DNA of 64,000 nt from Flaviramulus basaltis (lineage in GTDB: Bacteria > Bacteroidota > Bacteroidia > Flavobacteriales > Flavobacteriaceae), in contig NZ_FPKV01000001.1 in assembly GCF_900114265.1 (NCBI RefSeq), positions 372,001 to 436,000 of the forward strand, in the 5' to 3' direction. Position numbers and translations under genes: made by a program. Positions 21,743-39,028 of this stretch are shown one piece after another. A model generated the notes under the pieces. The model searched no databases and was not told the origin of the DNA. It was given only the letters and a program-made list of their open reading frames with translations. The stretch's first letter is position 1. Each line of letters begins with the position of its first letter.

Positions 21743-22747
21743 TTAGTTCAATATTTTATATAACAAATACCCAATAATTAAAATAAATACTCCTATTACT
21801 AACCAGGTGCTATACAAATTCTTTTTCTGAAATACTATTTGGTCCAATAACAATCGTTTTTCCATCTCTGTCTGCTTTTTAAAGGTTTCCAATTCCTCAA
21901 TCTTAGTCTTAACCAATCTGCTTCTTTCTTTATAAATATTAATCGTGTTTTGCAAAAAAGTTCCAACGGCAGTTGGTGTAGAAAACCCCCTATCTGCTAT
22001 TTTTTCCATTAGGGTTTTATCGGCATCATGCCCAATACCAGTAATAAAGGGAATGGGCAGTTCTAAAACTTTTTTACACAATTCTATATTATTAAACACT
22101 TCCAATCCACTACCTCCCCCTCTAAGCACTATTAATAAATCTGTAGTTGCGAAATCGTGGGTTTTTAAAAACTCTAATATTTCTTTTTCAGATGATAAAC
22201 TACATTTGTGGTGTCTTATTCTGAAATAATCTGAATCGGTAAGTTGACCCATATAATCATCTTCAGAAGTCGATTGAACACCAATAATAACATCCAAAAT
22301 CGGGCTTAAACCTTTTTCAAGCTTAGAGGCAAGTATATCATTGATTAGAGGAAAATCTCGTTCAAACCTTGCCTGTATGATATCATACTCAATTTTAGAT
22401 ATAGCTTGCACGTTTTTCTCATGCTTTAATATCTTAGTTACTCTAAAAAATATATTCAGTTTAGATTCATTAGATAAACTTTGAGCTTTGGTTATAAAAC
22501 CCTCAAATTGATAATATTTTCCATCAGTAATTTCTTCTTTTAAACTTGTAGTAAACTGAGCTGTTATTTTATATTGCTTGTCTTTACTAACGATATCATC
22601 ATAATAATACTTACCATAAAGTTTGCCTTTTTTATGAAAATAAAAGCCCTCTAGTATTAATAATGAACCATCTAAAGTAGACGAAAGACTTTTTGCATAT
22701 AGCGTTTGAAGAATGGATACAGTTATATTGGCTGTTTGATTTGGCAT
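21743..22747 (-). CDS. Exonuclease VII large-subunit-like protein with C-terminal membrane anchor
   Basis: A 334-aa protein. Residues about 5-108 form an OB-fold-like domain as in XseA. Residues about 140-265 hold the XseA catalytic core with LRGGGSGLEVFN (208-219), GIGHDADKTL (237-246) and FSTPTAVGTFLQ (255-266). The normal XseA continues with a long coiled-coil; here a short charged helix (270-310) is followed by a single transmembrane segment (LVIGVFILIIGYLLYKI, 316-332). No xseB partner is nearby. A membrane-tethered single-strand nuclease would be unusual and might act in defence; function is not known. Confidence 0.8.
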   Translation of the reverse strand: MPNQTANITVSILQTLYAKSLSSTLDGSLLILEGFYFHKKGKLYGKYYYDDIVSKDKQYKITAQFTTSLKEEITDGKYYQFEGFITKAQSLSNESKLNIFFRVTKILKHEKNVQAISKIEYDIIQARFERDFPLINDILASKLEKGLSPILDVIIGVQSTSEDDYMGQLTDSDYFRIRHHKCSLSSEKEILEFLKTHDFATTDLLIVLRGGGSGLEVFNNIELCKKVLELPIPFITGIGHDADKTLMEKIADRGFSTPTAVGTFLQNTINIYKERSRLVKTKIEELETFKKQTEMEKRLLLDQIVFQKKNLYSTWLVIGVFILIIGYLLYKILN

Positions 22748-24299: not shown

Positions 24300-24497
24300 A
24301 TGAACCGAATAAAGGAAGCACTTGAAGATAAAGGGATTAAGCAAACTTGGCTGGCCGAAAAACTGAGAAAGAGTTACAACATGATGAATGGTTATGTTCA
24401 AAATAGGCAACAACCAAGATTGGAGATTTTGAATGACATTGCTAGAATCCTTGAAATTGATGTAAAAGCCTTAATTGTTAGTAGTAAGAATAAATGA
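24300..24497 (+). CDS. XRE regulator heading the defence operon
   Basis: A 65-aa helix-turn-helix protein (KEALEDKGIKQTWLAEKLRK, YNMMNGYVQNRQQPRLEILN). It overlaps hsdS by ATGA and so is the first gene of the operon through hsdM. It probably sets the timing of expression, like the control proteins of restriction systems, so that modification precedes cutting. Confidence 0.85.
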   Translation: MNRIKEALEDKGIKQTWLAEKLRKSYNMMNGYVQNRQQPRLEILNDIARILEIDVKALIVSSKNK

Positions 24498-26284
24498 GCC
24501 AAAATACAGAAACAGAATTTCCAAGCAGTTGGTTTCAGGTGCCATTATCAGATTTATTTTTGGATCCTAAAAACAATATTGTAGATGGACCTTTCGGCTC
24601 TAACTTAAAGGCAAGCGAGTATCAAGATGAAGGGATACCAGTTATTCGAATACAGAATATTGACAGAAATAGGTTTATTGATAAAAATATCAATTATGTT
24701 TCTGAAGAAAAGGCTGATTTTCTTTCAAGGCATAGCTTTAAAAGTGGTGATATTATCATAACTAAACTTGGAGACCCGGTAGGAAAGGCTTGTTTCGTTC
24801 CCAAGAAATATGAAACAGGGATTATTGTTGCCGACTTAATTAGAGCAAGAATAGATAACAAACATCTCAACGACAAGTTCTTATTATATCAGCTTAATTC
24901 AAGTTATCTAATCAAACAATTCGATAAATTCACTAAAGGTACTACAAGGCCAAGAATTAAGTTGAGTATTGTTCGCGACTTAATAGTAAATCTGGCTCCT
25001 ATAAAGGAGCAACTTCGTATTGTAGAGTTTATTGAAGAATTATTCAGTGAATTAGACAATGGTGTGGATAATCTTAAATTGGCACAAAGCCAACTGAAAG
25101 TCTATCGACAGGCTTTGCTGAAATATGCCTTTGAGGGCAAACTCACCGAACAATGGCGCAAGGAAAACAATCCCGAACCCGCAGAAAAACTACTTGAGCG
25201 CATCAAGGAAGAACGTCATCAACGCTACGAACAAGAAGTCAAAGAATGGAAAGTAGAGGTAAAAGTCTGGGAGAGGGAAGGCAAGCAAGAGAAGAAGCCG
25301 AGAAAGCCAATCAAACCTGTTGATTTTCCATCTATAAGTAAAGAAATATTGGATCAGTTACCATCAATACCAAGGAATTGGAAATGGATTAGAAATAATG
25401 ATTTATTGTATTACGTAACTAGTGGATCTAGAGACTGGAAAAAATATTACGCTAATTCTGGCGCTTATTTTATAAGAACTCAAGACATTAAGACAAACAA
25501 ACTTAAAATTGAAAATGCTGCTTTTGTTAATCTTCCTGAAAATGTAGAAGGAAAAAGAAGTTTGGTTCAAAAAGGGGACTTGTTAATGACAATTACGGGG
25601 GCAAATGTTGGCAAGGTTGCATATATAAAAGATGATATAATGGAATCATATGTAAGCCAATCAGTTGCTTTAATGAAGCCTATCAATACTAGAGTATCCC
25701 CATTTTTACATCTATACTTCCAGTCAGATGTTTATGGTGGAAAAATGATTAGTGGATTAGTCTATGGAATTGGTAGACCTGTCTTAAGCTTGGAAAATAT
25801 GCGTGAATCACCTATAACCTTGTGTTCTTTTGAGGAACAGGAGGAAATAATATCATCGATTGAATCTCAATTTTCAATCATTGACAACTTAGAAAAAACT
25901 ATCGAATCTGGCCTTCAAAAATCAGAAGCCCTTCGCCAATCCATTTTAAAGAAAGCCTTTGAAGGTAAATTAGTGCTTCAAGATCCCAAGGATGAGCCCG
26001 CTTCGAAACTGCTCAAACGGATACAAGCAGAAAAGAAAAAGTACCTGGAAGAGCAGAAAAAACAGAAGAAAAGAAAACCTAAAAACACAAAGAAGATGAG
26101 TAAAGAACTGAGCATAGAAGAAGTACTCAAAACTTCTGACAAACCCATGCTTGCCAAAGATGTGTGGCAAAAAAGCAAGCATAGGGATAATATTGAGGAT
26201 TTTTACAAAGAGTTGAAAGACATTCAGTTAAAGATCAAGGAAGTGAAAAAAGGCACAGAATCATTGTTAAGTCTCGCAAAATGA
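24494..26284 (+). CDS. hsdS: Type I restriction specificity subunit HsdS
   Basis: A 596-aa protein with two target-recognition domains (about residues 10-185 and 285-470), separated and followed by conserved coiled-coil spacers (LRIVEFIEELFSELDNGVDN, ALLKYAFEGKLTEQW; and LEKTIESGLQKSEALRQSIL, KKAFEGKLV). It would set the DNA sequence methylated by HsdM. It is longer than usual: after a Lys/Gln-rich linker (about 510-540) an extra C-terminal domain of about 60 residues follows (SIEEVLKTSDKPMLAKDVWQ), perhaps a contact for the downstream nuclease proteins. It overlaps both neighbours by 4 bases. Confidence 0.92.
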   Translation: MSQNTETEFPSSWFQVPLSDLFLDPKNNIVDGPFGSNLKASEYQDEGIPVIRIQNIDRNRFIDKNINYVSEEKADFLSRHSFKSGDIIITKLGDPVGKACFVPKKYETGIIVADLIRARIDNKHLNDKFLLYQLNSSYLIKQFDKFTKGTTRPRIKLSIVRDLIVNLAPIKEQLRIVEFIEELFSELDNGVDNLKLAQSQLKVYRQALLKYAFEGKLTEQWRKENNPEPAEKLLERIKEERHQRYEQEVKEWKVEVKVWEREGKQEKKPRKPIKPVDFPSISKEILDQLPSIPRNWKWIRNNDLLYYVTSGSRDWKKYYANSGAYFIRTQDIKTNKLKIENAAFVNLPENVEGKRSLVQKGDLLMTITGANVGKVAYIKDDIMESYVSQSVALMKPINTRVSPFLHLYFQSDVYGGKMISGLVYGIGRPVLSLENMRESPITLCSFEEQEEIISSIESQFSIIDNLEKTIESGLQKSEALRQSILKKAFEGKLVLQDPKDEPASKLLKRIQAEKKKYLEEQKKQKKRKPKNTKKMSKELSIEEVLKTSDKPMLAKDVWQKSKHRDNIEDFYKELKDIQLKIKEVKKGTESLLSLAK

Positions 26285-27876
26285 GGATAGACAAAGTACA
26301 TATCAAAACACGGTTCAAGAACCTGGAGAATTTTCAGATTAATATAGATGAAAATGCCTGGGAAACTGTTTTACTTGGTCTCAATGCCACTGGCAAATCC
26401 AACTTCTTAGAAGCTTTGGTTATTATTTTTAGGGATTTAGACTTAATATTTAATCACAACCGGAAAATTGCAAAACATGATTTTGATTACTACATCAAAT
26501 ATGAATGCAGAAATAACAATATTGAAATCATTCTCGAAAATGGCAAATACAGTTTTATAGTCAATTCGATTCCTGAAACAACCACTGTCACTCAGAACAT
26601 AGAGCACTATCTCCCTAAACATGTCTTTATTTACTATTCAGGGATTAGTGACCGGCTTGCCAATTTGTATTTGCCCCATCAGAAAATTTACTATGAGAAG
26701 ATTATTAAACCTGATGCAAAGAGAGAGCAGTTTGACGAGATTCGAAGAATTTTCTTAGCTCAAAATATACATGCCAATTTTGCTCTTATTGCCTTTTATA
26801 TGTTTAAGGATCAAGAAGAAGAGACTATTAAGTTCTTAAGGGATGAATTGAATATTAGTGGTTTTGGTTCAGCTCTTTTTATGCTTAAAGAACCTGATTG
26901 GGCAAAAGGTAAAGACTTTAATCGAGGAGCATCAAATATGTGGGGTTCTGACGGATTGGTTAGCAGATTCCTTAATGATTTACTAAGGTTTTCTTATGCT
27001 CCTATTGAGTATAAAGCAAAAGAGGATATAACATATAAAAAGTCTGAAACACAAAACCGATTGTATCTCTTTTTGAAGGAAAAAGAAGATTTTCAGGATT
27101 TAGTTGATTTAAAATACAATAATAAAATTGAGCTATTTAATGCTTTAGAGAGTATTCACATTTCTGATATGCTTTATGATGTTAAAATCAAGGTTAAAAA
27201 GGAAAATGTAGATGGTGAGTTGGCTATGTCAGAACTTAGCGAAGGTGAAAAACAGCTCCTTACCGTTTTGGGTCTATTGAAATTCACCAAAGATGAAGAA
27301 TCATTAATTCTTCTTGATGAGCCCGATACTCATTTGAATCCCATGTGGAAATGGAAGTTCTTGGATTACCTGGAAAGAGTGGTAAAGAGAAAGGAAAATA
27401 CGCAGATTATTTTCTGTTCGCATGACCCGTTGGTAATTGGAAATCTGAAGAAAAATCAGGTTCAAATTTTCAAAAAAGATAAAGATGGGAAAACGGTAGC
27501 TTTCAATCCTTATATGAGTCCAAGAGAAATGAGTGTGTCAAAAATTCTGACCAGTGAATTGTTCGGCATTCCTTCATTAATGAGTAAAAAACTAGAAGAC
27601 CTTCTCAATCAAAAACGATTTCTTCAAGCAAAAATCTCACAAGGCGAACTTGACGAAGATGAAAGAAACCAATTTGAAAGGCTTAAAAAATATTTTGATA
27701 GGATAGGTTTTGGAGACGAGACTATGGATAGCCGCTATAATCAATACCTGAAGTTAACAAGTAATCACAAAGAATTCGCCAATAGGAAGTACACGAAAGA
27801 GGAAGCGGAAGAATTAGACAGAATTGCCAAAGAAGTATTAGATGAAATTCTAAAGGAGGAAAAGGAGGGGAAATGA
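26281..27876 (+). CDS. PtuA-like AAA/ABC ATPase (Septu-type)
   Basis: A 531-aa ABC-type ATPase with Walker A GLNATGKSN (33-41), signature LSEGEKQLL (about 319-327), Walker B LILLDEPDTHLNP (about 341-353) and the H-loop FCSHDPLVI (about 378-386). The C-terminus has a charged helical tail. This architecture followed directly by an HNH protein is that of the Septu anti-phage pair PtuA-PtuB, in which the ATPase senses infection and controls the nuclease. It is unusual here because it lies inside a Type I-like operon, coupled by ATGA overlaps to hsdS and to the HNH gene. Other RecF/OLD-like ATPases are less likely given the HNH partner. Confidence 0.85.
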   Translation: MRIDKVHIKTRFKNLENFQINIDENAWETVLLGLNATGKSNFLEALVIIFRDLDLIFNHNRKIAKHDFDYYIKYECRNNNIEIILENGKYSFIVNSIPETTTVTQNIEHYLPKHVFIYYSGISDRLANLYLPHQKIYYEKIIKPDAKREQFDEIRRIFLAQNIHANFALIAFYMFKDQEEETIKFLRDELNISGFGSALFMLKEPDWAKGKDFNRGASNMWGSDGLVSRFLNDLLRFSYAPIEYKAKEDITYKKSETQNRLYLFLKEKEDFQDLVDLKYNNKIELFNALESIHISDMLYDVKIKVKKENVDGELAMSELSEGEKQLLTVLGLLKFTKDEESLILLDEPDTHLNPMWKWKFLDYLERVVKRKENTQIIFCSHDPLVIGNLKKNQVQIFKKDKDGKTVAFNPYMSPREMSVSKILTSELFGIPSLMSKKLEDLLNQKRFLQAKISQGELDEDERNQFERLKKYFDRIGFGDETMDSRYNQYLKLTSNHKEFANRKYTKEEAEELDRIAKEVLDEILKEEKEGK

Positions 27877-28775
27877 GGCATATTGATAAGACAAGGTTTA
27901 GGCAAGCGGTGGCTGACTTTATTGATGTAGATGGCTCAACTTGGGATCAAATAAAGCAAAATCGATTGAATGCAATGACAGACTTGACTGTCGATCAAAG
28001 GAAAGCATATATAAGAACAAATCCGGTTTGGAATAAGCTACAACCGATTATGATGAGTCTTTCACATAATAAATGTTGGTACTCAGAGGCTACTTTTGGT
28101 AATGGAGATCCAGAGGTTGATCATTTTAGACCTAAAAACAGTGCAAAACAGAAAGTTGATTATGCAGACCCTAAAAGTGAGTCCACCATACACAAACCAA
28201 ATGGGTACTGGTGGTTAGCATATGATTGGTTTAATTACAGATTGTCTGGAGATTTAGCCAACAAGAGAAGAAGAGACAGACTGGGAGATTGTGATGATGT
28301 CAAAGGTAAAGGTGATTACTTTCCGCTAGATTTGGTAAATGGGAGAATTGCCAATGATGAAGAGAATTGCAATTGTGAATTTCCAATTTTATTGGATCCC
28401 CTTGAACCAGATGACGTCTGTCTAATCACTTTTGATAAAGGTATTCCAATACCTGCCACAACAGATCCTGATGGAATCGATCGTGTGAATCAATCAATTT
28501 TTTACTATCACCTTGAACTAGATCAGCTTAACAAAGACCGTAAAATAGTCTGGGATGAATGTGTGGATCAAATCATGGATGCTAAAGAAGCAATTGATAA
28601 TTCTCAAAACGCAGCTGATAGAAGGAGTTCAGTTAAAAAGTGTTATAAAGAACTGAGGAAACTTGTTGATTCCGAGAAGAGAGCTTTTACAAGTACTGCG
28701 AAAGCATGCTTGATGGTTTATGCGGAATTGGATGGATATAGAGAATGGCTTAAAGACTTAGTAAGAACGCTCTAA
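27873..28775 (+). CDS. PtuB-like HNH endonuclease
   Basis: A 300-aa nuclease with the HNH-type core CWYSEATFGNGDPEVDHFRP (about residues 68-87), then GYWWLAYDWFNYRLSGDLAN and a DYFPL motif. These are landmarks of the PtuB/retron-associated HNH family; the second Cys of the usual CxxC is replaced by Ser (CWYS). Overlap with the PtuA-like gene (ATGA) and with the next gene (TAATG) shows tight coupling. It would cut DNA or tRNA-like targets on activation. Confidence 0.85.
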   Translation: MRHIDKTRFRQAVADFIDVDGSTWDQIKQNRLNAMTDLTVDQRKAYIRTNPVWNKLQPIMMSLSHNKCWYSEATFGNGDPEVDHFRPKNSAKQKVDYADPKSESTIHKPNGYWWLAYDWFNYRLSGDLANKRRRDRLGDCDDVKGKGDYFPLDLVNGRIANDEENCNCEFPILLDPLEPDDVCLITFDKGIPIPATTDPDGIDRVNQSIFYYHLELDQLNKDRKIVWDECVDQIMDAKEAIDNSQNAADRRSSVKKCYKELRKLVDSEKRAFTSTAKACLMVYAELDGYREWLKDLVRTL

Positions 28776-30589
28776 TGAAATTCAAAGTATTAAATAGAAC
28801 CCATATTGAGCAAGCTGCGGGCATCATTGACGACCAAGGTATTCCTAAAGAAATTGTTTGGAGCCAATATTACGTGGCTGTAAACGGCAATGAATATCCG
28901 TTTAAACATCTGGTAAGAACTGCTTACGAACTAGCTACTGGAGAGAAATTGCAATTTCAATCCAATGAGTTGTACCGTGGATATGTTGAAAACGACTTAG
29001 GTTTTGAATTTCGGTATTATGAGGGTGGATATAATTTCCTCACCAAAGAGGAATTGGAGTTTTATAGTTCAATCGTCAATACAGATTATAGAACATCAAA
29101 TCCCAAACATCAATATTACGGTCAAAAGCTCTATCCTATTATTGCAAAAGCCAAATATTGGGCAGAGCAAATTTTGATAGAAGGATTCAAGCTTAGACAA
29201 GACGGCAACTGGCTTAATGGTCATGTGGCCCGTATAAAACCCTATTTTTGGCCAAGAATTTATAGTGGGGAGGATAAAGATGTTTTCTTCAATGTAGAGG
29301 TCAATGGTTCAGAAAAATTTATTGGGTATAAGTTGGATGGCTATTTTGAGACTACAAAAGCACTTCCGGATTATAAAATCAAATTGCTTGAAGAATACAA
29401 AACCCGAATCAATTGGGAGTGGCCTAAAATTCCATTTGACCAATTGGATGAATACAATTGGGATAGACTCATTGAAGAAAGCAAAGCCTACCTTCAGAAA
29501 TATTTACCACATCACAATCACTTGAAAAGGTTACTTTTAAAAGAATCAAAAATTGCCCGTATCACCTGGAATACGAACGGTTGGGTAAAACCATCTGGTT
29601 TAACAGGCAAATCAAGAAATCCGAGTTTTGAAAATGAGCATGGTTTTGGTCACGAAGAATGGTTATTCGATGGAGACAAAGTGATTGATGGGTATAAGTA
29701 TGGTTTTTTAGAACCCATCCATAAATTTCGTTCAAAGTATGAAGGTCAGATCTTTGATCTTACGCTTTACTCCAGAGATGGGGAATCAAACAAAAATTTT
29801 TGGGTTACCAATCTGAAAGATGTTGAAGTACTTTTACCAGAAGAATCAGAAAAGATTTTAGCACTCTACAAGAAAGAAGGTTGGTATGATGAAATGAAAG
29901 CTGATCTGTACAATCTCAATCTTGATTCTGGTCAATTAGATACATGGATTAAAGAAGGTGCTGATCAGTTGTTCAATGTGAAGTTCAAAGCTTCACAACT
30001 CAATGAAATTCAAGCGGAGCTAATGCCTGTATTGAACGATAATGAAATTGCATCCAATCGATACATTTTAATGGATATGTCGTCCGATCTGTATGAAAAA
30101 ATTAAGGATAGTGTAAAAATTGGATTTTCATTCGAAGACTCTGGCAGTGAAGAAGCAGACCTTGGTACAAAAAGTAAAAGAACGGCGAGAAAGAGAGAGA
30201 TTGAACTCGAGTTAAAACATAATATTCTGCAAACCAAATTCTTGAAATACCTTCAAAACAAATATGGTAAGGCAATTGTGAAAAGGGAGTGTACAGCTTA
30301 TGGGTCTTCACGTATTGATGTGACCCGAAAAACCGATACAGGCTATATATTCTATGAAATCAAGACTTACAACAGTTTGAGAACTTCTATTAGAGAAGGA
30401 ATTGGGCAGTTGTTGGAATATTCTCTATATCCCAATTTGAATGAAGCCGAATGTATTGTTTTGGTTTCTCATGTGGCACCATCAGGTGAAGTTAAAAACT
30501 ATCTTAATCATCTAAAGAATTTTATTAAGCTTCCTTTTTCCTATATCCATTTTGATATTGAGCAAGAGGAAATAATTTTAAAAATATAA
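28775..30589 (+). CDS. McrA-like head domain plus PD-(D/E)XK nuclease-like protein
   Basis: A 604-aa protein. Residues 1-85 (HIEQAAGIIDDQGIPKEIVW, YPFKHLVRTAYELATG, YVENDLGFEF) match the pattern of the ScoMcrA-like N-terminal head domain of Type IV restriction enzymes. A middle region of about 350 residues is not recognised. The C-terminus (about 490-600) has a PD-(D/E)XK-like core: SSRIDVTRKTD, YIFYEIKTYN and an IREGIGQLLEY helix. It starts at a TAATG overlap with the HNH gene and ends 3 bases before hsdM. It is a good candidate for the cutting or sensing subunit replacing HsdR. The head-domain assignment is from pattern memory. Confidence 0.72.
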   Translation: MKFKVLNRTHIEQAAGIIDDQGIPKEIVWSQYYVAVNGNEYPFKHLVRTAYELATGEKLQFQSNELYRGYVENDLGFEFRYYEGGYNFLTKEELEFYSSIVNTDYRTSNPKHQYYGQKLYPIIAKAKYWAEQILIEGFKLRQDGNWLNGHVARIKPYFWPRIYSGEDKDVFFNVEVNGSEKFIGYKLDGYFETTKALPDYKIKLLEEYKTRINWEWPKIPFDQLDEYNWDRLIEESKAYLQKYLPHHNHLKRLLLKESKIARITWNTNGWVKPSGLTGKSRNPSFENEHGFGHEEWLFDGDKVIDGYKYGFLEPIHKFRSKYEGQIFDLTLYSRDGESNKNFWVTNLKDVEVLLPEESEKILALYKKEGWYDEMKADLYNLNLDSGQLDTWIKEGADQLFNVKFKASQLNEIQAELMPVLNDNEIASNRYILMDMSSDLYEKIKDSVKIGFSFEDSGSEEADLGTKSKRTARKREIELELKHNILQTKFLKYLQNKYGKAIVKRECTAYGSSRIDVTRKTDTGYIFYEIKTYNSLRTSIREGIGQLLEYSLYPNLNEAECIVLVSHVAPSGEVKNYLNHLKNFIKLPFSYIHFDIEQEEIILKI

Positions 30590-30592
30590 CTT

Positions 30593-32056
30593 ATGGCAAC
30601 AAATAACTTAGTCGCAAAAATATGGTCATTCTGTGATACGCTTAGAGATGACGGACTTGGATACGGAGACTATTTAGAGCAATTGACTTTTTTGTTATTC
30701 CTTAAAATGGCGGATGAAAATAATAGCCAATATAACTTACCTAACGGATGCGATTGGAAAACAATTTTAAAGAGCACTCAGATCATAGAAGATTATGAAA
30801 ATCTTCTAAAAACCTTATCTAATGCTGGTGGAATGTTAAGTAAAATTTTTGCCGGTGCACAGAATAAAATTCATGATTCAGTTAAATTAAAAAGATTAAT
30901 TAAGCTAATTGATGGTGAAGATTGGACAAATCAGGACGTAGATATCAAAGGAGAAATCTACGAATCACTTCTTCAGAAAAATGCTGAAAACAGTGGTGCG
31001 GGTCAGTACTTTACTCCTAGGTCTGTTATTTCTGCGATGATAACCTGTATAGACCCAAAACCCATGGAAACCATTGCCGATCCTTCCTGTGGTACTGGTG
31101 GATTCTTTCTTGGCGCCTTGAATCATTTGAACGAAAAGCAATTATCAACGGAAGAAGCTAATTTTCTAAAATTCAAAGCATTCCATGGATGGGAAATTGA
31201 GAAATCTACGGCTCGTTTATGTTTAATGAATCTCTTTCTACATGGTGTAGGTGACCTAAAAGAAACTCCTGACATACAAGTTACAGACAGTCTAAAACGT
31301 GGAATTAATGGAGAAGTTGAAGAAAATGAAAAGGTGTCGATCGTATTGGCGAATCCTCCATTTGGAGTGAGTAGTAGTGATATTCCAACGATTGATTTTG
31401 AGCAGTCTAAAAAAGATGGATATTTTCTTAGAAAAGATTTCTGGGTAACAACTAGCAATAAACAACTAGCATTTTTACAACATATTGTCGCAATGTTGAA
31501 CGAGGATGGTCGTGCAGCAGTGGTTCTTCCTGATAATGTACTATTTGAAGGGGGAGCCGGAGAAGCCATCAGAAAAAGACTTTTGGAAGAAACTAATCTG
31601 CATACGATTTTGCGACTTCCAACGGGAATTTTTTATGCCCAAGGAGTAAAAGCAAATGTTCTTTTTTTTGACAAACCTCAAGAGTCAGTAAAATCAACTA
31701 CTACTAAAGAAATTTGGTATTATGACTATAGAACTAACATCAGCCATACTCCAAAGAAGAATCCTCTAAAGTCTACAGATTTAAAAGAGTTTATGGGCTT
31801 ATATCATTCTGGTAATCTTACTAAAAGGAAAGAAACCTGGTCAGAAGAAAACCCAGAAGGTCGTTGGCGAAAATATTCACTAAAAGAACTTCTAAATCGT
31901 GATAAAACGAGCTTAGATATTTTTTGGCTACGAAATGACAGTATAGTAGATTTAGACAATTTACCTGATCCGAACGATTTGGCTAATGAGATAATTGAGA
32001 ATATTGATGGGGCCTTGGAAAGTTTTAAAAATATAACATTAAAACTCAAGGATTAG
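30593..32056 (+). CDS. hsdM: Type I N6-adenine DNA methyltransferase HsdM
   Basis: A 487-aa methyltransferase with an HsdM N-terminal helical domain (GLGYGDYLEQLTFLLFLKMA), the QYFTPRSVI segment, SAM-binding motif I DPSCGTGGFF (163-172) and catalytic NPPF (254-257). It would methylate adenine at the HsdS-chosen sequence. It is the last gene of the operon, 3 bases after the McrA-like gene. No hsdR is present before or after it in the window. Confidence 0.95.
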   Translation: MATNNLVAKIWSFCDTLRDDGLGYGDYLEQLTFLLFLKMADENNSQYNLPNGCDWKTILKSTQIIEDYENLLKTLSNAGGMLSKIFAGAQNKIHDSVKLKRLIKLIDGEDWTNQDVDIKGEIYESLLQKNAENSGAGQYFTPRSVISAMITCIDPKPMETIADPSCGTGGFFLGALNHLNEKQLSTEEANFLKFKAFHGWEIEKSTARLCLMNLFLHGVGDLKETPDIQVTDSLKRGINGEVEENEKVSIVLANPPFGVSSSDIPTIDFEQSKKDGYFLRKDFWVTTSNKQLAFLQHIVAMLNEDGRAAVVLPDNVLFEGGAGEAIRKRLLEETNLHTILRLPTGIFYAQGVKANVLFFDKPQESVKSTTTKEIWYYDYRTNISHTPKKNPLKSTDLKEFMGLYHSGNLTKRKETWSEENPEGRWRKYSLKELLNRDKTSLDIFWLRNDSIVDLDNLPDPNDLANEIIENIDGALESFKNITLKLKD

Positions 32057-34036: not shown

Positions 34037-34807
34037 TTATACCAATTTTTCCAAAGCCTTCAATTCAACACCCAACTCATTAAACATATCAATGATACTG
34101 CTCAACTTAAGTTCTTCTTCGCTGTATTCCTGTGTATTGATACTACATGTAAATTCCCATATTTCAAGGACCTCATTAATGGGAACACTATAATCATGGT
34201 ACTTTTTGTTGTCCGACATCAACAATAAGGACCCATTAAAATCAATATTGTTCATGACACGTTTGTATACCATCCCATCATTTAAAGTCACCAAAACATA
34301 GGTTCTTCCAGTTTTTATCTCACTTCTATCTTCCACAAAACGACCAACGATAAAGGCACCATCTTTCATGGGCAGCATGGAATCCCCTTTAATGGGAAAG
34401 GCACGATGCTTACCAGTGGGCAAAAAAGGCAATTTAATTTTCTGTAATTGCTCAATATATTCAGGGTCATCATAACCTGCCAAATAACCTGCGGATGCTT
34501 TAACGGGCACCACTTCAATCAAGTTCTCATTTTCTGAATCGACTGTTATCGGAAACAATACCCGTTGGTTTCCAATTTCAATAAATGAGGAATCCTTGGA
34601 TTTAGTCAGATCATTTCGCAACAATATATCAATGGGTATCTTAAAAAAATCCGATAGCTTTATCAACACCTCAATGGTGGGGGCCGAACGGTTTTCCTCA
34701 TAAGAACCGATCCTTGAGCGTGTAATCTTCAACTCCTCTGCCAACACTTCCTGTGAGAGCTTTTTTAGAGTTCTTAAATGTTTTATGTTTTTTGCTATAA
34801 TTTTCAT
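34037..34807 (-). CDS. XRE repressor with S24 (LexA/UmuD-like) peptidase domain
   Basis: A 256-aa protein with an N-terminal HTH (MKIIAKNIKHLRTLKKLSQE, ITRSRIGSYEENRSAPTIEV) and a C-terminal S24 domain (KASAGYLAGY with cleavage-like Ala-Gly, FPIKGDSMLPMKDGAFIVG with catalytic Ser, and MVYKRV with the Lys). It would repress and, on RecA-stimulated self-cleavage, release the divergent polymerase cassette. Its promoter is inside the inverted repeat at 34809-34827, so it probably autoregulates. Confidence 0.88.
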   Translation of the reverse strand: MKIIAKNIKHLRTLKKLSQEVLAEELKITRSRIGSYEENRSAPTIEVLIKLSDFFKIPIDILLRNDLTKSKDSSFIEIGNQRVLFPITVDSENENLIEVVPVKASAGYLAGYDDPEYIEQLQKIKLPFLPTGKHRAFPIKGDSMLPMKDGAFIVGRFVEDRSEIKTGRTYVLVTLNDGMVYKRVMNNIDFNGSLLLMSDNKKYHDYSVPINEVLEIWEFTCSINTQEYSEEELKLSSIIDMFNELGVELKALEKLV

Positions 34808-34808
34808 A

Positions 34809-34827
34809 TTGCTACAAATATAAGCAA
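34809..34827. promoter_or_regulatory. Candidate operator of the S24 repressor
   Basis: TTGCT-nine bases-AGCAA is an inverted repeat 2 bases from the repressor start. It contains a minus-strand TATATTTG box (34815-34822). In the opposite direction a TAATTTTG (34848-34855) ends 5 bases before the polymerase ATG, which would give an almost leaderless mRNA. Confidence 0.5.
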
Positions 34828-34859
34828 TAATTACTAAAATATGTAGCTAATTTTGAAGC

Positions 34860-36074
34860 ATGGAAAAACAAATTTTGCATTTGGATTTAGACACCTTCTT
34901 TGTATCCTGTGAACGGTTGATAGATAGCCGCTTACAAAAAAGGCCCCTACTCGTTGGTGGCACTGGAGACCGGGGCGTCGTGGCCGCTTGCAGTTATGAA
35001 ACCCGTCGTTTTGGAGTACATTCAGGGATGCCCATGCGATTGGCAAAACGCTTGTGTCCCGAGGCCGTAGTCATTCGGGGCAATGCATCCATTTACACAA
35101 AATTCTCGCACCAAGTAACAGAAATCATCAAAGAAAAAGTGCCTGTTTTTGAAAAAGCAAGCGTGGATGAGTTTTATGCTGATTTAAGTGGCATGGACAA
35201 GTTCTTTGGGAGCTATAAATATGCCTCTGAAATGCGGGCTATCATCATAAAGGAAACAGGTTTACCCATTTCATTTGGTCTATCAAGCAATAAAATTGTC
35301 TCGAAAGTGGCTACGGGAGAAGCCAAACCCAATAACCAATTGCGCATAGACCCTGGTTTTGAAAAACCTTTTTTGGCCCCCTTATCTATTAGAAAAATAC
35401 CTTCCGTTGGTGATAAAACCTATCAGATTTTAAGAAACCTGGGGATAGACAAAGTGGGAATGGTACAGCAAATGCCTTTGGAAATGATGACCAGTGTACT
35501 AGGTGCAAATGGAAGAACCATTTGGAAACGTGCCAATGGTATCGATAATCCACCGCTCATCCCATTTCACGAGCGCAAATCCATTTCAACGGAGCGCACC
35601 TTTTCAAAGGACACCACGGACATTGTAAAATTACGGACAACCATTTTTGCCATGGCTGAAAACCTAGCATTTCAATTGCGAAGAGGGGATAAATTAGCCT
35701 CCTGTATCAGTGTAAAAATCAGATACTCAGATTTTAATACGTATTCGAAGCAGCTCAAAATCCCATATACCAGTGCGGACCATGTTTTGATCCCCAGAAT
35801 TTTGGAGTTGTTCGATACTTTGTACCAGCGTCGTTTATTGATCCGCTTAGTCGGCGTCAAGTTCAGTGACTTAGTTTCCGGTAATTATCAAATTAATCTA
35901 TTCGATGACACAGCAGCGATGTTAAGCCTCTACAACGCCATGGATACGATACGGAATCGCTATGGGGAGTTAAGCATTCAAAAAGCAGCTTCCATGGGTG
36001 CAAGAACTATTGGAAGGTTCCAAAACCCCTTCAATGGTGAGCCCCCTATTTTATTAGCCCATAGAAAACAATAA
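34860..36074 (+). CDS. dinB: Y-family translesion DNA polymerase (Pol IV/ImuB-like)
   Basis: A 404-aa polymerase with both catalytic acidic sites intact: DLDTFF (Asp9, Asp11) and SVDEFYAD (Asp103, Glu104). A clamp-binding motif QINLFDD occurs near residue 344. The lack of lesions in the active site separates it from catalytically dead ImuB. Its stop overlaps the start of the DnaE2-like gene (TAATG), forming an SOS-controlled mutagenesis cassette with the divergent S24 repressor. Confidence 0.92.
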   Translation: MEKQILHLDLDTFFVSCERLIDSRLQKRPLLVGGTGDRGVVAACSYETRRFGVHSGMPMRLAKRLCPEAVVIRGNASIYTKFSHQVTEIIKEKVPVFEKASVDEFYADLSGMDKFFGSYKYASEMRAIIIKETGLPISFGLSSNKIVSKVATGEAKPNNQLRIDPGFEKPFLAPLSIRKIPSVGDKTYQILRNLGIDKVGMVQQMPLEMMTSVLGANGRTIWKRANGIDNPPLIPFHERKSISTERTFSKDTTDIVKLRTTIFAMAENLAFQLRRGDKLASCISVKIRYSDFNTYSKQLKIPYTSADHVLIPRILELFDTLYQRRLLIRLVGVKFSDLVSGNYQINLFDDTAAMLSLYNAMDTIRNRYGELSIQKAASMGARTIGRFQNPFNGEPPILLAHRKQ

Positions 36075-39028
36075 TGTACCTCAATTGCCATACCTATTAT
36101 TCGTTGCGCTTTGGAACTTTTTCGGAGGTTGAGCTCCTTGAATTGGCTAAAAGCAACCACATAGAAACCGTTGTCTTAACAGATATAAACAATACCTCTG
36201 CCTGTTTGAACTTTATCCGCAAATCCAAGGCATATGACATCAAGCCCGTCATCGGTATCGATTTTAGGAATGGGGTATCACAACAATTTGTGGGTATCGC
36301 AAAAAACAACCATGGGTTTCAGGAATTAAATGCCTTTTTATCTGAGCATTCCCATAACAAAAAAAGCATTCCCGACAATGCCCCAAATTTCAATGATGTA
36401 TTTATTATATATCCTTTTGAAAAGGTTTTGCAAAACGAAAAAAAACAGTTCAGGGACCATGAGTTCATTGGGGTTTCCATTGAGGAATTAAGGAAACTTC
36501 CTTTCTCCATCTACACCTCCTATACCAATAAATTGGTCATACAGCAACAAGTAACCATTCGCAACAAAAAGGACTTCAATGCGCACCGCCTATTGAGGGC
36601 CATTGACAACAATACCCTGCTAAGCAAACTTCAAAAATCAGAAGAATGCAAATTAACGGATATTATGTTGTCTCTTGAAGCCATAAAAACGGCATTTAGT
36701 GAATTTCCGCATATCATTACCAATACGGAACAGATCTTAAATACCTGTTCCATTGATTTTAGTTTTGGCAAGGATAGGATATCACAAAATCAAAAGGTGT
36801 ATTTGGACTCACCAGAAGCAGATTATGAGCTCTTGGAAACCTTATGTCAGGATAATTTGCACAAACGCTATTCCCATCCCACAGAAAAGGTAAAAGCTCG
36901 TTTACAAACAGAGCTAAACACTATAAAGAACATGAGTTTTGTGTCTTACTTTCTAATTAACCATGATATTATATCCTATTCAAAACGTATGGGATATGTA
37001 CATGTTGGGCGTGGCAGCGGTGCCAATAGCATCGTGGCATATATAATCGGCATCACTGATGTTGACCCAATAGAGTTGGATTTATACTTTGAGCGCTTTA
37101 TCAATCCATTCAGGGCATCCCCGCCTGATTTTGATATTGATTTCTCTTGGAAAGACAGAGAGGATATCACACGGTATATTTTTGATCGGTTCAAGAATGT
37201 GGCATTGTTGGCAACCTATAATACTTTCAAATATCGAGGTGTCGTACGGGAATTGGGAAAAGTATTTGGATTGCCAAAAGAAGAAATAGACAAGTTGAGT
37301 GATGGTATGTATGACATTGAAAATTTAGATGCGATGTCAAATTTGGTTTTAAAGTATGGACAGCTCATTAAGGGCTTTCCAAACCATTTGAGCGTACACG
37401 CTTGCGGTGTATTGATTTTAGATAGGCCCATCCATTTCTACTCAGCTACCGATCTACCACCAAAAGGCTTTCCGACCATTCAATTTGATATGATTATTGC
37501 AGAGGATGTAGGGATTTTTAAGTTTGACATTTTAGGCCAACGGGGGCTTGCTAAAATTAAGGAGGCGATTGAAATTGTTAAATACAATAGACCGGAACTG
37601 CCCCCCATTGATATTACCCAAGTTGAGACCTTTAAAAAGGACCCAAAGATCAATGCCCTTTTAAAAAGGGGCAAAGCAATTGGCGCTTATTATGTTGAAT
37701 CCCCTGCCATGCGTGGGCTCATGCAAAAACTTCAGACACAAGATTATTTAGGGCTGGTTGCAGCGAGTTCCATTATTAGACCTGGTGTTTCAAGTTCTGG
37801 AATGAAAAAGGAATTTATCATCAGGCAACGGTATCCGGAAAGGCGTCGGGAAGCCAACCCCATCTTATTAAAGATCATGCCTGAGACTTATGGCATTATG
37901 GTATACCAGGAGGATGTTTTAAAGGTGGCCCATGAGTTTGCTGGACTGAACTTAGGGGAGGCAGATGTATTGCGCCGAGGGATGAGCGGTAAATTCAGGT
38001 CAAGAACTGAGTTTGCTCAAGTAGAACAGAAATTCATTAAAAACTGTCATGAAAAAGGGTATCCAGAAGCTTTAACTTTAGAAGTATGGCACCAAATAAA
38101 AAGTTTTGCTGGCTATGCTTTTGCAAAAGGGCATTCCGCATCATACGCCGTGGAGAGTTACCAAAGTTTATATCTTAAATGCTATTTCCCTTTGGAATTT
38201 ATGGTCGCCGTATTAAATAATGGTGGTGGTTTTTACAGCACTGAGCATTACATCCATGAGGCCAAAATGTGTGGGGGAACGATACATCCGCCATGCATTA
38301 ATACCAGCCAGTTTGAAAACATCATAAAAGGCAAGGCCATATACCTAGGCTTTGGATATTTAAAAAGCCTGGAATCACTGACCATCAAAAGATTCCTGAC
38401 AGAAAGAAATTTTAACGGCCCGTATAAGTCATTAGATGATTTTATAGACCGTGTATCGATTAGTGTTGAACAAATCACGATCCTGATACGGATTGATGCG
38501 TTTAGATTTACCCATCAATCAAAAACGGCGTTGTTATGGGAATCCATTTTTAAGTTAAACGCCAACAAACAAGTTATATCACAAGCCCGTTTATTCAAAA
38601 CCAACCATCGTAAATTCAATTTACCATCTTTGACGACTACGTTTGTTGAAGAAGCCTATGACCAAATAGAATTGCTTGGTTTTCCACTCTGTGGCTACTT
38701 TGACCTCATGGATGAAGCCTGTCAAAAAAGCATAAAAGCTAGTGAATTAAATAGGCACATCAATCAAAGTGTGTTGCTTTATGGTGCATTGGTAAACACC
38801 AGGTTCCATAAAGCCTCAAATGGAAAACTAATCAGGTTTTGTACATTTATAGATAAAGATGGACACTATTTTGATTCGGTACATTTCCCAAAAGTTGTTG
38901 ATAAGTACCCCATACATGGTTTAGGGGTTTATGCATGCCATGGAAAGGTTACTGAAGAGTTTGGTTTTTGTAGTTTGGATATCCAATGGACAAAAAAAAT
39001 GTCCTTAAAACCAGATCCCAGAAGTTGA
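36074..39028 (+). CDS. DnaE2-like DNA polymerase III alpha subunit
   Basis: A 984-aa C-family polymerase with an N-terminal PHP domain (MYLNCHTYYSLRFGTF), the HVGRGSGANS segment, the catalytic PDFDIDFSW (about 353-361) and the FAGYAFAKGHSASYA thumb/finger motif. It is much shorter than the chromosomal DnaE at 52-56 kb and lacks its exonuclease domain. As the second gene of the polymerase cassette it is a likely error-prone extender, analogous to ImuC/DnaE2. Confidence 0.93.
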   Translation: MYLNCHTYYSLRFGTFSEVELLELAKSNHIETVVLTDINNTSACLNFIRKSKAYDIKPVIGIDFRNGVSQQFVGIAKNNHGFQELNAFLSEHSHNKKSIPDNAPNFNDVFIIYPFEKVLQNEKKQFRDHEFIGVSIEELRKLPFSIYTSYTNKLVIQQQVTIRNKKDFNAHRLLRAIDNNTLLSKLQKSEECKLTDIMLSLEAIKTAFSEFPHIITNTEQILNTCSIDFSFGKDRISQNQKVYLDSPEADYELLETLCQDNLHKRYSHPTEKVKARLQTELNTIKNMSFVSYFLINHDIISYSKRMGYVHVGRGSGANSIVAYIIGITDVDPIELDLYFERFINPFRASPPDFDIDFSWKDREDITRYIFDRFKNVALLATYNTFKYRGVVRELGKVFGLPKEEIDKLSDGMYDIENLDAMSNLVLKYGQLIKGFPNHLSVHACGVLILDRPIHFYSATDLPPKGFPTIQFDMIIAEDVGIFKFDILGQRGLAKIKEAIEIVKYNRPELPPIDITQVETFKKDPKINALLKRGKAIGAYYVESPAMRGLMQKLQTQDYLGLVAASSIIRPGVSSSGMKKEFIIRQRYPERRREANPILLKIMPETYGIMVYQEDVLKVAHEFAGLNLGEADVLRRGMSGKFRSRTEFAQVEQKFIKNCHEKGYPEALTLEVWHQIKSFAGYAFAKGHSASYAVESYQSLYLKCYFPLEFMVAVLNNGGGFYSTEHYIHEAKMCGGTIHPPCINTSQFENIIKGKAIYLGFGYLKSLESLTIKRFLTERNFNGPYKSLDDFIDRVSISVEQITILIRIDAFRFTHQSKTALLWESIFKLNANKQVISQARLFKTNHRKFNLPSLTTTFVEEAYDQIELLGFPLCGYFDLMDEACQKSIKASELNRHINQSVLLYGALVNTRFHKASNGKLIRFCTFIDKDGHYFDSVHFPKVVDKYPIHGLGVYACHGKVTEEFGFCSLDIQWTKKMSLKPDPRS

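What the first reader, a model, noticed from the sequence alone, without database searches (positions are those of the whole stretch)
24300..32056. Composite defence operon: Type I hsdS/hsdM enclosing Septu-like and McrA-like nuclease genes, with no hsdR
Six genes overlap or abut (ATGA, ATGA, ATGA, TAATG, 3-base gap) in the order XRE, hsdS, PtuA-like ATPase, PtuB-like HNH, McrA-head/PD-(D/E)XK protein, hsdM. Sequence shows DNA specificity and methylation subunits plus an ATPase-nuclease pair and a second nuclease, but no HsdR in the window. Known Type I systems need HsdR; known Septu is PtuA-PtuB alone. Inference: the ATPase/HNH and McrA-like proteins replace HsdR as methylation-guided effectors.
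Basis: partly seen in the sequence, partly recalled or inferred. Interest (0 to 1): 0.88.

Follow-up and report, generated by a model that had tools for sequence, protein, structure and literature searches.

The report
Restriction-type methylase paired with Septu nuclease
A bacterial DNA-marking enzyme that normally works with its own cutting subunit is repeatedly found, in unrelated bacteria, without that subunit and joined to a different anti-virus ATPase-nuclease pair (Septu), probably through a special tail on its DNA-reading subunit; this may be a little-described way of building a restriction system.

Summary
The six-gene operon is real at the stated coordinates: XRE, hsdS, ptuA, ptuB, a PD-(D/E)XK nuclease gene, hsdM, with overlapping or abutting genes and no hsdR. 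The conserved unit is hsdM-hsdS-ptuA-ptuB. I found 19 distinct loci of this PtuA clade in Bacteroidota and Pseudomonadota, including E. coli islands and plasmids; all have hsdS and hsdM adjacent, and hsdR is next to only 4. A complete one-contig genome carries the four genes and no recognisable HsdR. PtuA proteins 94% identical occur with and without hsdR. The fifth gene is an optional accessory; its catalytic motif is clear, but the 'McrA head' label is not supported. Three observations favour a coupled, working system: HsdS carries a C-terminal winged-helix-like tail found only on PtuAB-linked HsdS; target-recognition domains are swapped as in active Type I systems even without hsdR; and the methylase, ATPase and HNH catalytic residues are invariant. 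Most likely HsdM2S marks self DNA and docks and gates PtuAB, so HsdR is dispensable. The trigger, and whether PtuAB cuts DNA or tRNA, are inferred or unknown. I found no description of this in the open-access papers searched.

The parts
24300..24497 (+). Small XRE/Cro-type HTH protein (65 aa), likely operon regulator; 89% identical in L006, the other hsdR-less locus with the fifth gene; sits where L003-L005 have hsdR
24494..26284 (+). hsdS, Type I specificity subunit with two target-recognition domains and a C-terminal extension
26096..26281 (+). C-terminal winged-helix-like tail of HsdS (about 62 aa), found only on PtuAB-linked HsdS in the sets searched; candidate docking adaptor
26281..27876 (+). 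ptuA, Septu-type ABC/SMC ATPase; Walker A K39, signature S320-E-G, Walker B D346-E347, H381 conserved
27873..28775 (+). ptuB, Septu-type HNH nuclease; H84, N121 and N130 invariant in 20 homologues
28775..30589 (+). Accessory nuclease: N-terminal region of unknown fold, 'GHEEW' region, C-terminal PD-(D/E)XK core (E505, D515, E528-x-K530, Q545); optional in the system
30593..32056 (+). hsdM, Type I adenine methyltransferase; motif I and NPPF (254-257) intact

Best explanation
This is an HsdR-independent defence system: a Type I methyltransferase (HsdM2S) coupled to a Septu PtuAB effector. HsdM2S methylates its own target sites so the host is marked as self. PtuA docks on the methyltransferase, most likely through the C-terminal winged-helix-like tail of HsdS. 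When the complex meets unmethylated target sites on incoming phage DNA, PtuA's ATPase switch frees or activates the PtuB HNH nuclease, which cuts nucleic acid (phage DNA, or host tRNA as other PtuAB do). The PD-(D/E)XK protein is an optional second nuclease and the XRE protein a regulator. Shown from sequence: gene content, linkage, intact catalytic residues, recognition-domain swapping, dispensability of hsdR, specificity of the tail. Inferred: docking, gating by methylation state, and the nucleic acid that is cut.
For: All 19 distinct main-clade loci have hsdS and hsdM next to ptuA; 15 of the 19 lack adjacent hsdR. In the one-contig genome G316 the best HsdR-profile hit is 39.5 bits in a 513-aa ORF (generic helicase region), and the only HSDR_N hit is a 355-aa stand-alone protein. 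In E. coli NCTC11121 the four genes lie between an integrase and dinD with no hsdR. On the PtuA tree well-supported branches force at least 5 gains or losses of hsdR, so PtuAB occurs in both settings. The HsdS tail is in hsdR+ and hsdR- loci and in two phyla (hhalign 8.8e-7 and 1.2e-4). In 390 Bacteroidota genomes its profile hits only PtuAB-linked HsdS apart from three hits of 21-22 bits in short ORFs (roughly 1.3 HsdS per genome). In 72,556 plasmids it hits only two PtuAB-linked HsdS. In 5,426 E. coli genomes it hits exactly the nine that carry the same ptuA gene. HsdS recognition domains are exchanged (window vs L006: TRD1 78-90%, TRD2 15-45%, tail 80-92%), also in hsdR- E. coli pairs. HsdM NPPF is invariant in 20 HsdM.
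Against: No experiment. HsdM and PtuA are exchanged against each other (E. coli HsdM 86% identical with PtuA 46%), so the coupling is not tight at whole-protein level. PtuAB works alone in canonical Septu. The tail is only weakly recognisable in L040, L041 and L048. hsdR is kept in four main-clade loci. AlphaFold models were too poor to test the fold or an interface.
Confidence: 0.5

Rival explanations
1. Guard model, as for PrrC: HsdM2S holds PtuAB silent, and PtuAB is released as an abortive toxin, probably a tRNA nuclease, when a phage anti-restriction protein such as Ocr or Stp engages the methyltransferase. Methylation state of phage DNA is not the trigger.
For: PrrC is embedded in a Type IC locus and released when EcoPrrI is inhibited (PMC12707154). 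PtuAB of a Septu system and of retron Eco7 cleave tRNA-Tyr (PMC13096335; PMC11555353). Some loci have hsdR. An HsdS tail could equally be an antitoxin contact.
Against: In hsdR-less loci there is no restriction activity to guard. Recognition-domain swapping and invariant methylase catalytic motifs are hard to explain if target sites and methylation do not matter.
Confidence: 0.22
2. Co-located but independent modules: an orphan methyltransferase and a Septu pair that share an operon without working together.
For: Type I operons can host unrelated defence genes, for example DarTG2 between hsdS and hsdR (PMC12255303). The fifth gene and hsdR come and go. PtuAB alone is a known defence system.
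Against: No PtuA of this clade was found without hsdS/hsdM. The HsdS tail is confined to PtuAB-linked HsdS. Specificity diversification is unexpected for an orphan methylase.
Confidence: 0.16
3. HsdR is supplied in trans or has been lost recently, so the locus is a decayed or split Type I system.
For: Most hsdR-less genomes examined have another HsdR elsewhere.
Against: The HsdR found with the L003-L005 loci has no relative in the window genome. The other HsdRs inspected, in G000 and G398, sit beside their own hsdM/hsdS of other families. G316 has none. hsdR-less forms are spread over two phyla with intact genes.
Confidence: 0.05
4. One reading: PtuA, PtuB and the fifth-gene nuclease together replace HsdR.
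For: The window and L006 have all three and no hsdR.
Against: L003-L005 have all three plus hsdR; most hsdR-less loci lack the fifth gene.
Confidence: 0.07

Closest known systems
Septu (PtuA-PtuB)
   Same: PtuA ATPase and PtuB HNH in order, overlapping; PADLOC PtuA1/PtuB1 models match over nearly full length; catalytic residues kept
   Different: Always with hsdS and hsdM in this clade; HsdS bears a dedicated tail; only distant sequence match to solved Septu and retron PtuA (8.6e-9 to 6e-4)
Type I restriction-modification, probably IB-like (the HsdR of L004 has EcoEI_R_C)
   Same: HsdM and HsdS with two TRDs and TRD exchange
   Different: No HsdR in 15 of 19 loci; C-terminal HsdS tail
PrrC/EcoPrrI and other toxins embedded in Type I loci (DarTG2 in EPEC)
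   Same: Effector genes inside a Type I operon; PtuAB can cleave tRNA in other systems
   Different: PrrC and DarTG2 sit in complete hsdRMS loci; here hsdR is usually missing
MADS (methylation-associated defense system)
   Same: HsdM-like and HsdS-like subunits with an AAA ATPase; NCBIfam MAD2, MAD3 and MAD5 models give weak matches
   Different: All matches far below the NCBIfam cut-offs (112.7 vs 720, 39.5 vs 420, 63.4 vs 400); other MADS genes not seen
Retron type I-A (Ec78/Eco7)
   Same: PtuAB effector under control of another nucleic-acid-binding complex
   Different: No reverse transcriptase; the controlling complex would be HsdM2S
BREX and DISARM
   Same: Methylase-marked self DNA with effectors other than HsdR (BREX in PMC12707154; DISARM from own knowledge)
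   Different: No PglZ, BrxC or DrmA/B families among the six proteins

Membership tests
Type I restriction-modification | HsdM with HsdM_N and N6_Mtase domains | tested here: met
   NPPF invariant
Type I restriction-modification | HsdS with two Methylase_S domains | tested here: met
Type I restriction-modification | Cognate HsdR | tested here: not met
   none adjacent; the other Type I HsdR belongs to another hsdMS
Septu | PtuA ATPase plus PtuB HNH, adjacent | tested here: met
Septu | Two-gene system acting alone | tested here: not met
   always linked to hsdS/hsdM in this clade; functional independence not testable here
Retron type I-A | Reverse transcriptase and ncRNA beside PtuAB | tested here: not met
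   no reverse transcriptase domain among the six proteins; ncRNA not searched
MADS | MAD2, MAD3 and MAD5 above NCBIfam cut-off | tested here: not met
McrA (Type IV) | HNH nuclease domain | tested here: not met
   the fifth gene has a PD-(D/E)XK core, no HNH, no Pfam head domain
PrrC-like guard systems | Release of the effector on inhibition of the restriction complex | not testable with these tools
   needs experiment

The most novel reading that the evidence does not exclude
A recurrent class of restriction system in which the Type I methyltransferase recruits, through a dedicated HsdS tail, a Septu PtuAB effector in place of the HsdR motor-nuclease, so that sequence-specific methylation gates a Septu response.
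Probability: 0.4. Interest if true: 0.8.

Novelty: new variant of a known kind. Interest (0 to 1): 0.64.

Why it matters
How Septu-family PtuAB is triggered is not settled in the sources read here; linking it to a methyltransferase would supply a defined, testable self/non-self trigger. It would also mean that the Type I methyltransferase can serve as an interchangeable targeting platform for effectors other than HsdR, with the HsdS tail as a short, deletable adaptor. Compact four-gene versions exist in E. coli, so the idea can be tested in a standard laboratory host.

Tried and rejected
AlphaFold models of the fifth-gene protein and PtuB were too poor to use (mean pLDDT 41 and 50), so no fold search was run. 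PDB sequence searches with PtuB and the fifth-gene protein found nothing. The 'McrA head' idea was tested with Pfam on the N-terminal 100 residues and by a genome search with that segment: no family, no other carrier in 385 genomes. The operator/promoter comparison of the two XRE loci gave no clear palindrome. Phage records hold neither PtuA nor the fifth-gene protein. Searching Pseudomonadota genomes through an E. coli centre was not possible. That HsdS length itself marks the system was dropped, because (own knowledge) Type IB HsdS are also long; the tail's sequence profile is the test used. HsdR in trans was considered and set aside mainly because of G316. Literature searches found no description of hsdR-less hsdMS-ptuAB, but only open-licence PMC papers are held.

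Full report
OBSERVATION. The operon is as described. Six ORFs lie head to tail on the + strand from 24300 to 32056 with junctions ATGA, ATGA, ATGA, TAATG and a 3-base gap. HMM searches identify XRE, HsdS, PtuA, PtuB and HsdM with strong scores. The fifth gene has no family at curated cut-offs. No HsdR is adjacent.

IS HSDR ELSEWHERE? The window genome (4.19 Mb, 32 contigs, 100% complete) has two other HSDR_N proteins. One is an HsdR on contig 11 that stands with its own hsdM and hsdS of a different family. The other is a 1084-aa protein that also holds an N6_Mtase domain. A homologue of the HsdR that accompanies related loci is absent, and the HsdR profile finds only the contig-11 protein apart from a weak 28.9-bit helicase-region hit.

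RELATED LOCI WITH THE FIFTH GENE. Four close relatives were found among 84,980 species genomes by exact-pattern scan, which reaches close relatives only. Three (L003 Mongoliibacter ruber, L004 uncultured Brumimicrobium, L005 a Bacteroidetes MAG) have a 916-927 aa protein immediately upstream of hsdS. In L004 it carries HSDR_N, ResIII, SWI2_SNF2 and EcoEI_R_C domains, so it is a true HsdR. The fourth, L006, has the same XRE gene as the window (89% identical) and no hsdR. HsdM follows hsdR status: L003-L005 HsdM are 88-95% identical to each other, window and L006 are 90% identical, but the two groups share only about 60%. PtuA does not follow it: L004 and L006 are 94% identical. The same effector cassette has therefore moved between an hsdR+ and an hsdR- chassis.

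RELATED LOCI WITH THE SAME PTUA CLADE. PtuA profile searches of 395 class and 395 phylum genomes, plasmids and E. coli genomes gave further loci. Every main-clade locus has hsdS and hsdM beside ptuA, in two orders: hsdS-ptuA-ptuB-hsdM, or hsdM-hsdS-ptuA-ptuB. Counting distinct loci (window, L003-L006, L033-L035, L037-L041, L047, L048, L052-L054, L056), hsdR is adjacent in L003, L004, L005 and L041 only, 4 of 19. L034 has hsdM interrupted by a transposase-like ORF, and in L035 ptuA is split. Four more distant PtuA loci (L036, L049, L050, L051) also have hsdM and hsdS; three have hsdR, and their HsdS lack the tail described below. In E. coli NCTC11121 the four genes lie at the end of an integrase-bounded island, next to dinD; other E. 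coli copies sit beside ygbA.

HSDR IS DISPENSABLE. G316 is a one-contig genome, 99% complete, with hsdM-hsdS-ptuA-ptuB (L047). Its best hit to an HsdR profile is 39.5 bits in a 513-aa ORF, and its only HSDR_N hit is a 355-aa stand-alone protein. The hsdR-positive L004 genome served as positive control in the same searches. On the PtuA tree starred branches force at least five changes of hsdR presence.

THE FIFTH GENE IS AN OPTION. Full-length relatives were found only in the window and L003-L006. The C-terminal part (about 350 aa) occurs as a separate gene in other genomes and plasmids in unrelated contexts. Eleven divergent homologues conserve E505, D515, E528-x-K530 and Q545, the motif pattern of PD-(D/E)XK nucleases. 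Related loci instead carry an NgoFVII-type PLD protein (L033), a DUF7669-HNH protein (L035) or an Mrr-type protein (L041) in or near the operon. The name McrA-like is not supported.

THE HSDS TAIL. PtuAB-linked HsdS end in a basic linker and a roughly 62-residue segment with a winged-helix-like pattern. It is nearly identical in window, L003-L006, L033 and L034, clear in L035 and L047, and detectable in the Pantoea, E. coli, Vibrio and Pseudoalteromonas loci by profile comparison (hhalign 8.8e-7 and 1.2e-4). In L040, L041 and L048 it is only suggestive. The fold is inferred from sequence, not modelled. The segment is specific: in 390 Bacteroidota genomes the profile finds it only on PtuAB-linked HsdS (three further hits are 21-22 bits in ORFs of 100-153 aa), although 21 sampled genomes hold roughly 28 HsdS ORFs. 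In 72,556 plasmids only two PtuAB-linked HsdS match. In 5,426 E. coli genomes nine match, the same nine that carry the ptuA gene found. It occurs in hsdR+ and hsdR- loci, so it goes with PtuAB, not with HsdR. The Pfam, PADLOC and NCBIfam scans made here report no domain specific to it.

THE METHYLTRANSFERASE IS UNDER ACTIVE USE. HsdM NPPF and motif I residues are conserved in 20 HsdM. HsdS recognition domains are swapped one at a time: window vs L006 keep TRD1 (78-90% per 40-residue block) and differ in TRD2 (15-45%), window vs L004 the reverse, and hsdR- E. coli pairs show the same mosaic. That is the signature of specificity change in working Type I systems.

MECHANISM. Taken together I favour methylation-gated control of PtuAB by HsdM2S through the HsdS tail. 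Shown: linkage, intactness, hsdR dispensability, tail specificity, specificity switching. Inferred: physical docking, gating by unmethylated sites, identity of the substrate. PtuAB cleaves tRNA-Tyr in one Septu and one retron (PMC13096335; PMC11555353) and was reported to act on nicked DNA in another Septu (as cited in PMC11555353), so either substrate is possible. The main rival is a PrrC-like guard (PMC12707154); the absence of HsdR and the recognition-domain swapping argue against it but do not exclude it. The XRE gene at the head of the operon may act like RptR, the repressor of a Type I locus that hosts DarTG2 (PMC12255303).

NOVELTY. PADLOC's survey describes Septu with a reverse transcriptase and notes Hma near Septu; the passages read do not describe Septu with hsdMS (PMC8565338). 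TIGR04435, a 'restriction system-associated AAA family ATPase', matches PtuA below its cut-off, so a loose association of such ATPases with restriction systems has been noticed in databases. I found no paper on hsdR-less hsdMS-ptuAB or the HsdS tail, but subscription papers and preprints could not be searched. I rate it a new variant of a known kind.

Noticed in passing
window 34037-39028 and L048 2302-7399: An XRE-S24 repressor, an impB/mucB-type (Y-family) polymerase and a DnaE-type polymerase form a cassette about 2 kb from the operon; in G174 (L048) an hsdM-hsdS-ptuA-ptuB locus with a PtuA only 33% identical lies about 300 bases beyond the same type of cassette, in the opposite orientation, suggesting a shared insertion hotspot.
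   Followed up: partly
L021 8922-9971, L022 8795-9895, L023 8030-9985: Homologues of the C-terminal part of the fifth-gene nuclease ('GHEEW' region plus PD-(D/E)XK) occur as separate genes without hsdMS; a nuclease family without Pfam match.
   Followed up: partly
L033 5019-6269, L035 5978-7189, L041 9443-10486: Different nuclease types (NgoFVII-type PLD, DUF7669-HNH, Mrr) lie in or beside related operons, as if an accessory nuclease slot were filled by different families.
   Followed up: partly
L054 1184-2668 and L079 3150-4634: In several E. coli copies a 494-aa protein with no Pfam match lies just upstream of hsdM and a Fic-family gene lies downstream.
   Followed up: no
L036, L049, L051: A second, more distant group of PtuA sits in hsdR-hsdM-hsdS operons whose HsdS lack the tail; it may represent the more usual embedded-effector arrangement.
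   Followed up: no
window 21743-22747: A 334-aa protein with a partial exonuclease VII large-subunit domain lies upstream of the operon.
   Followed up: no
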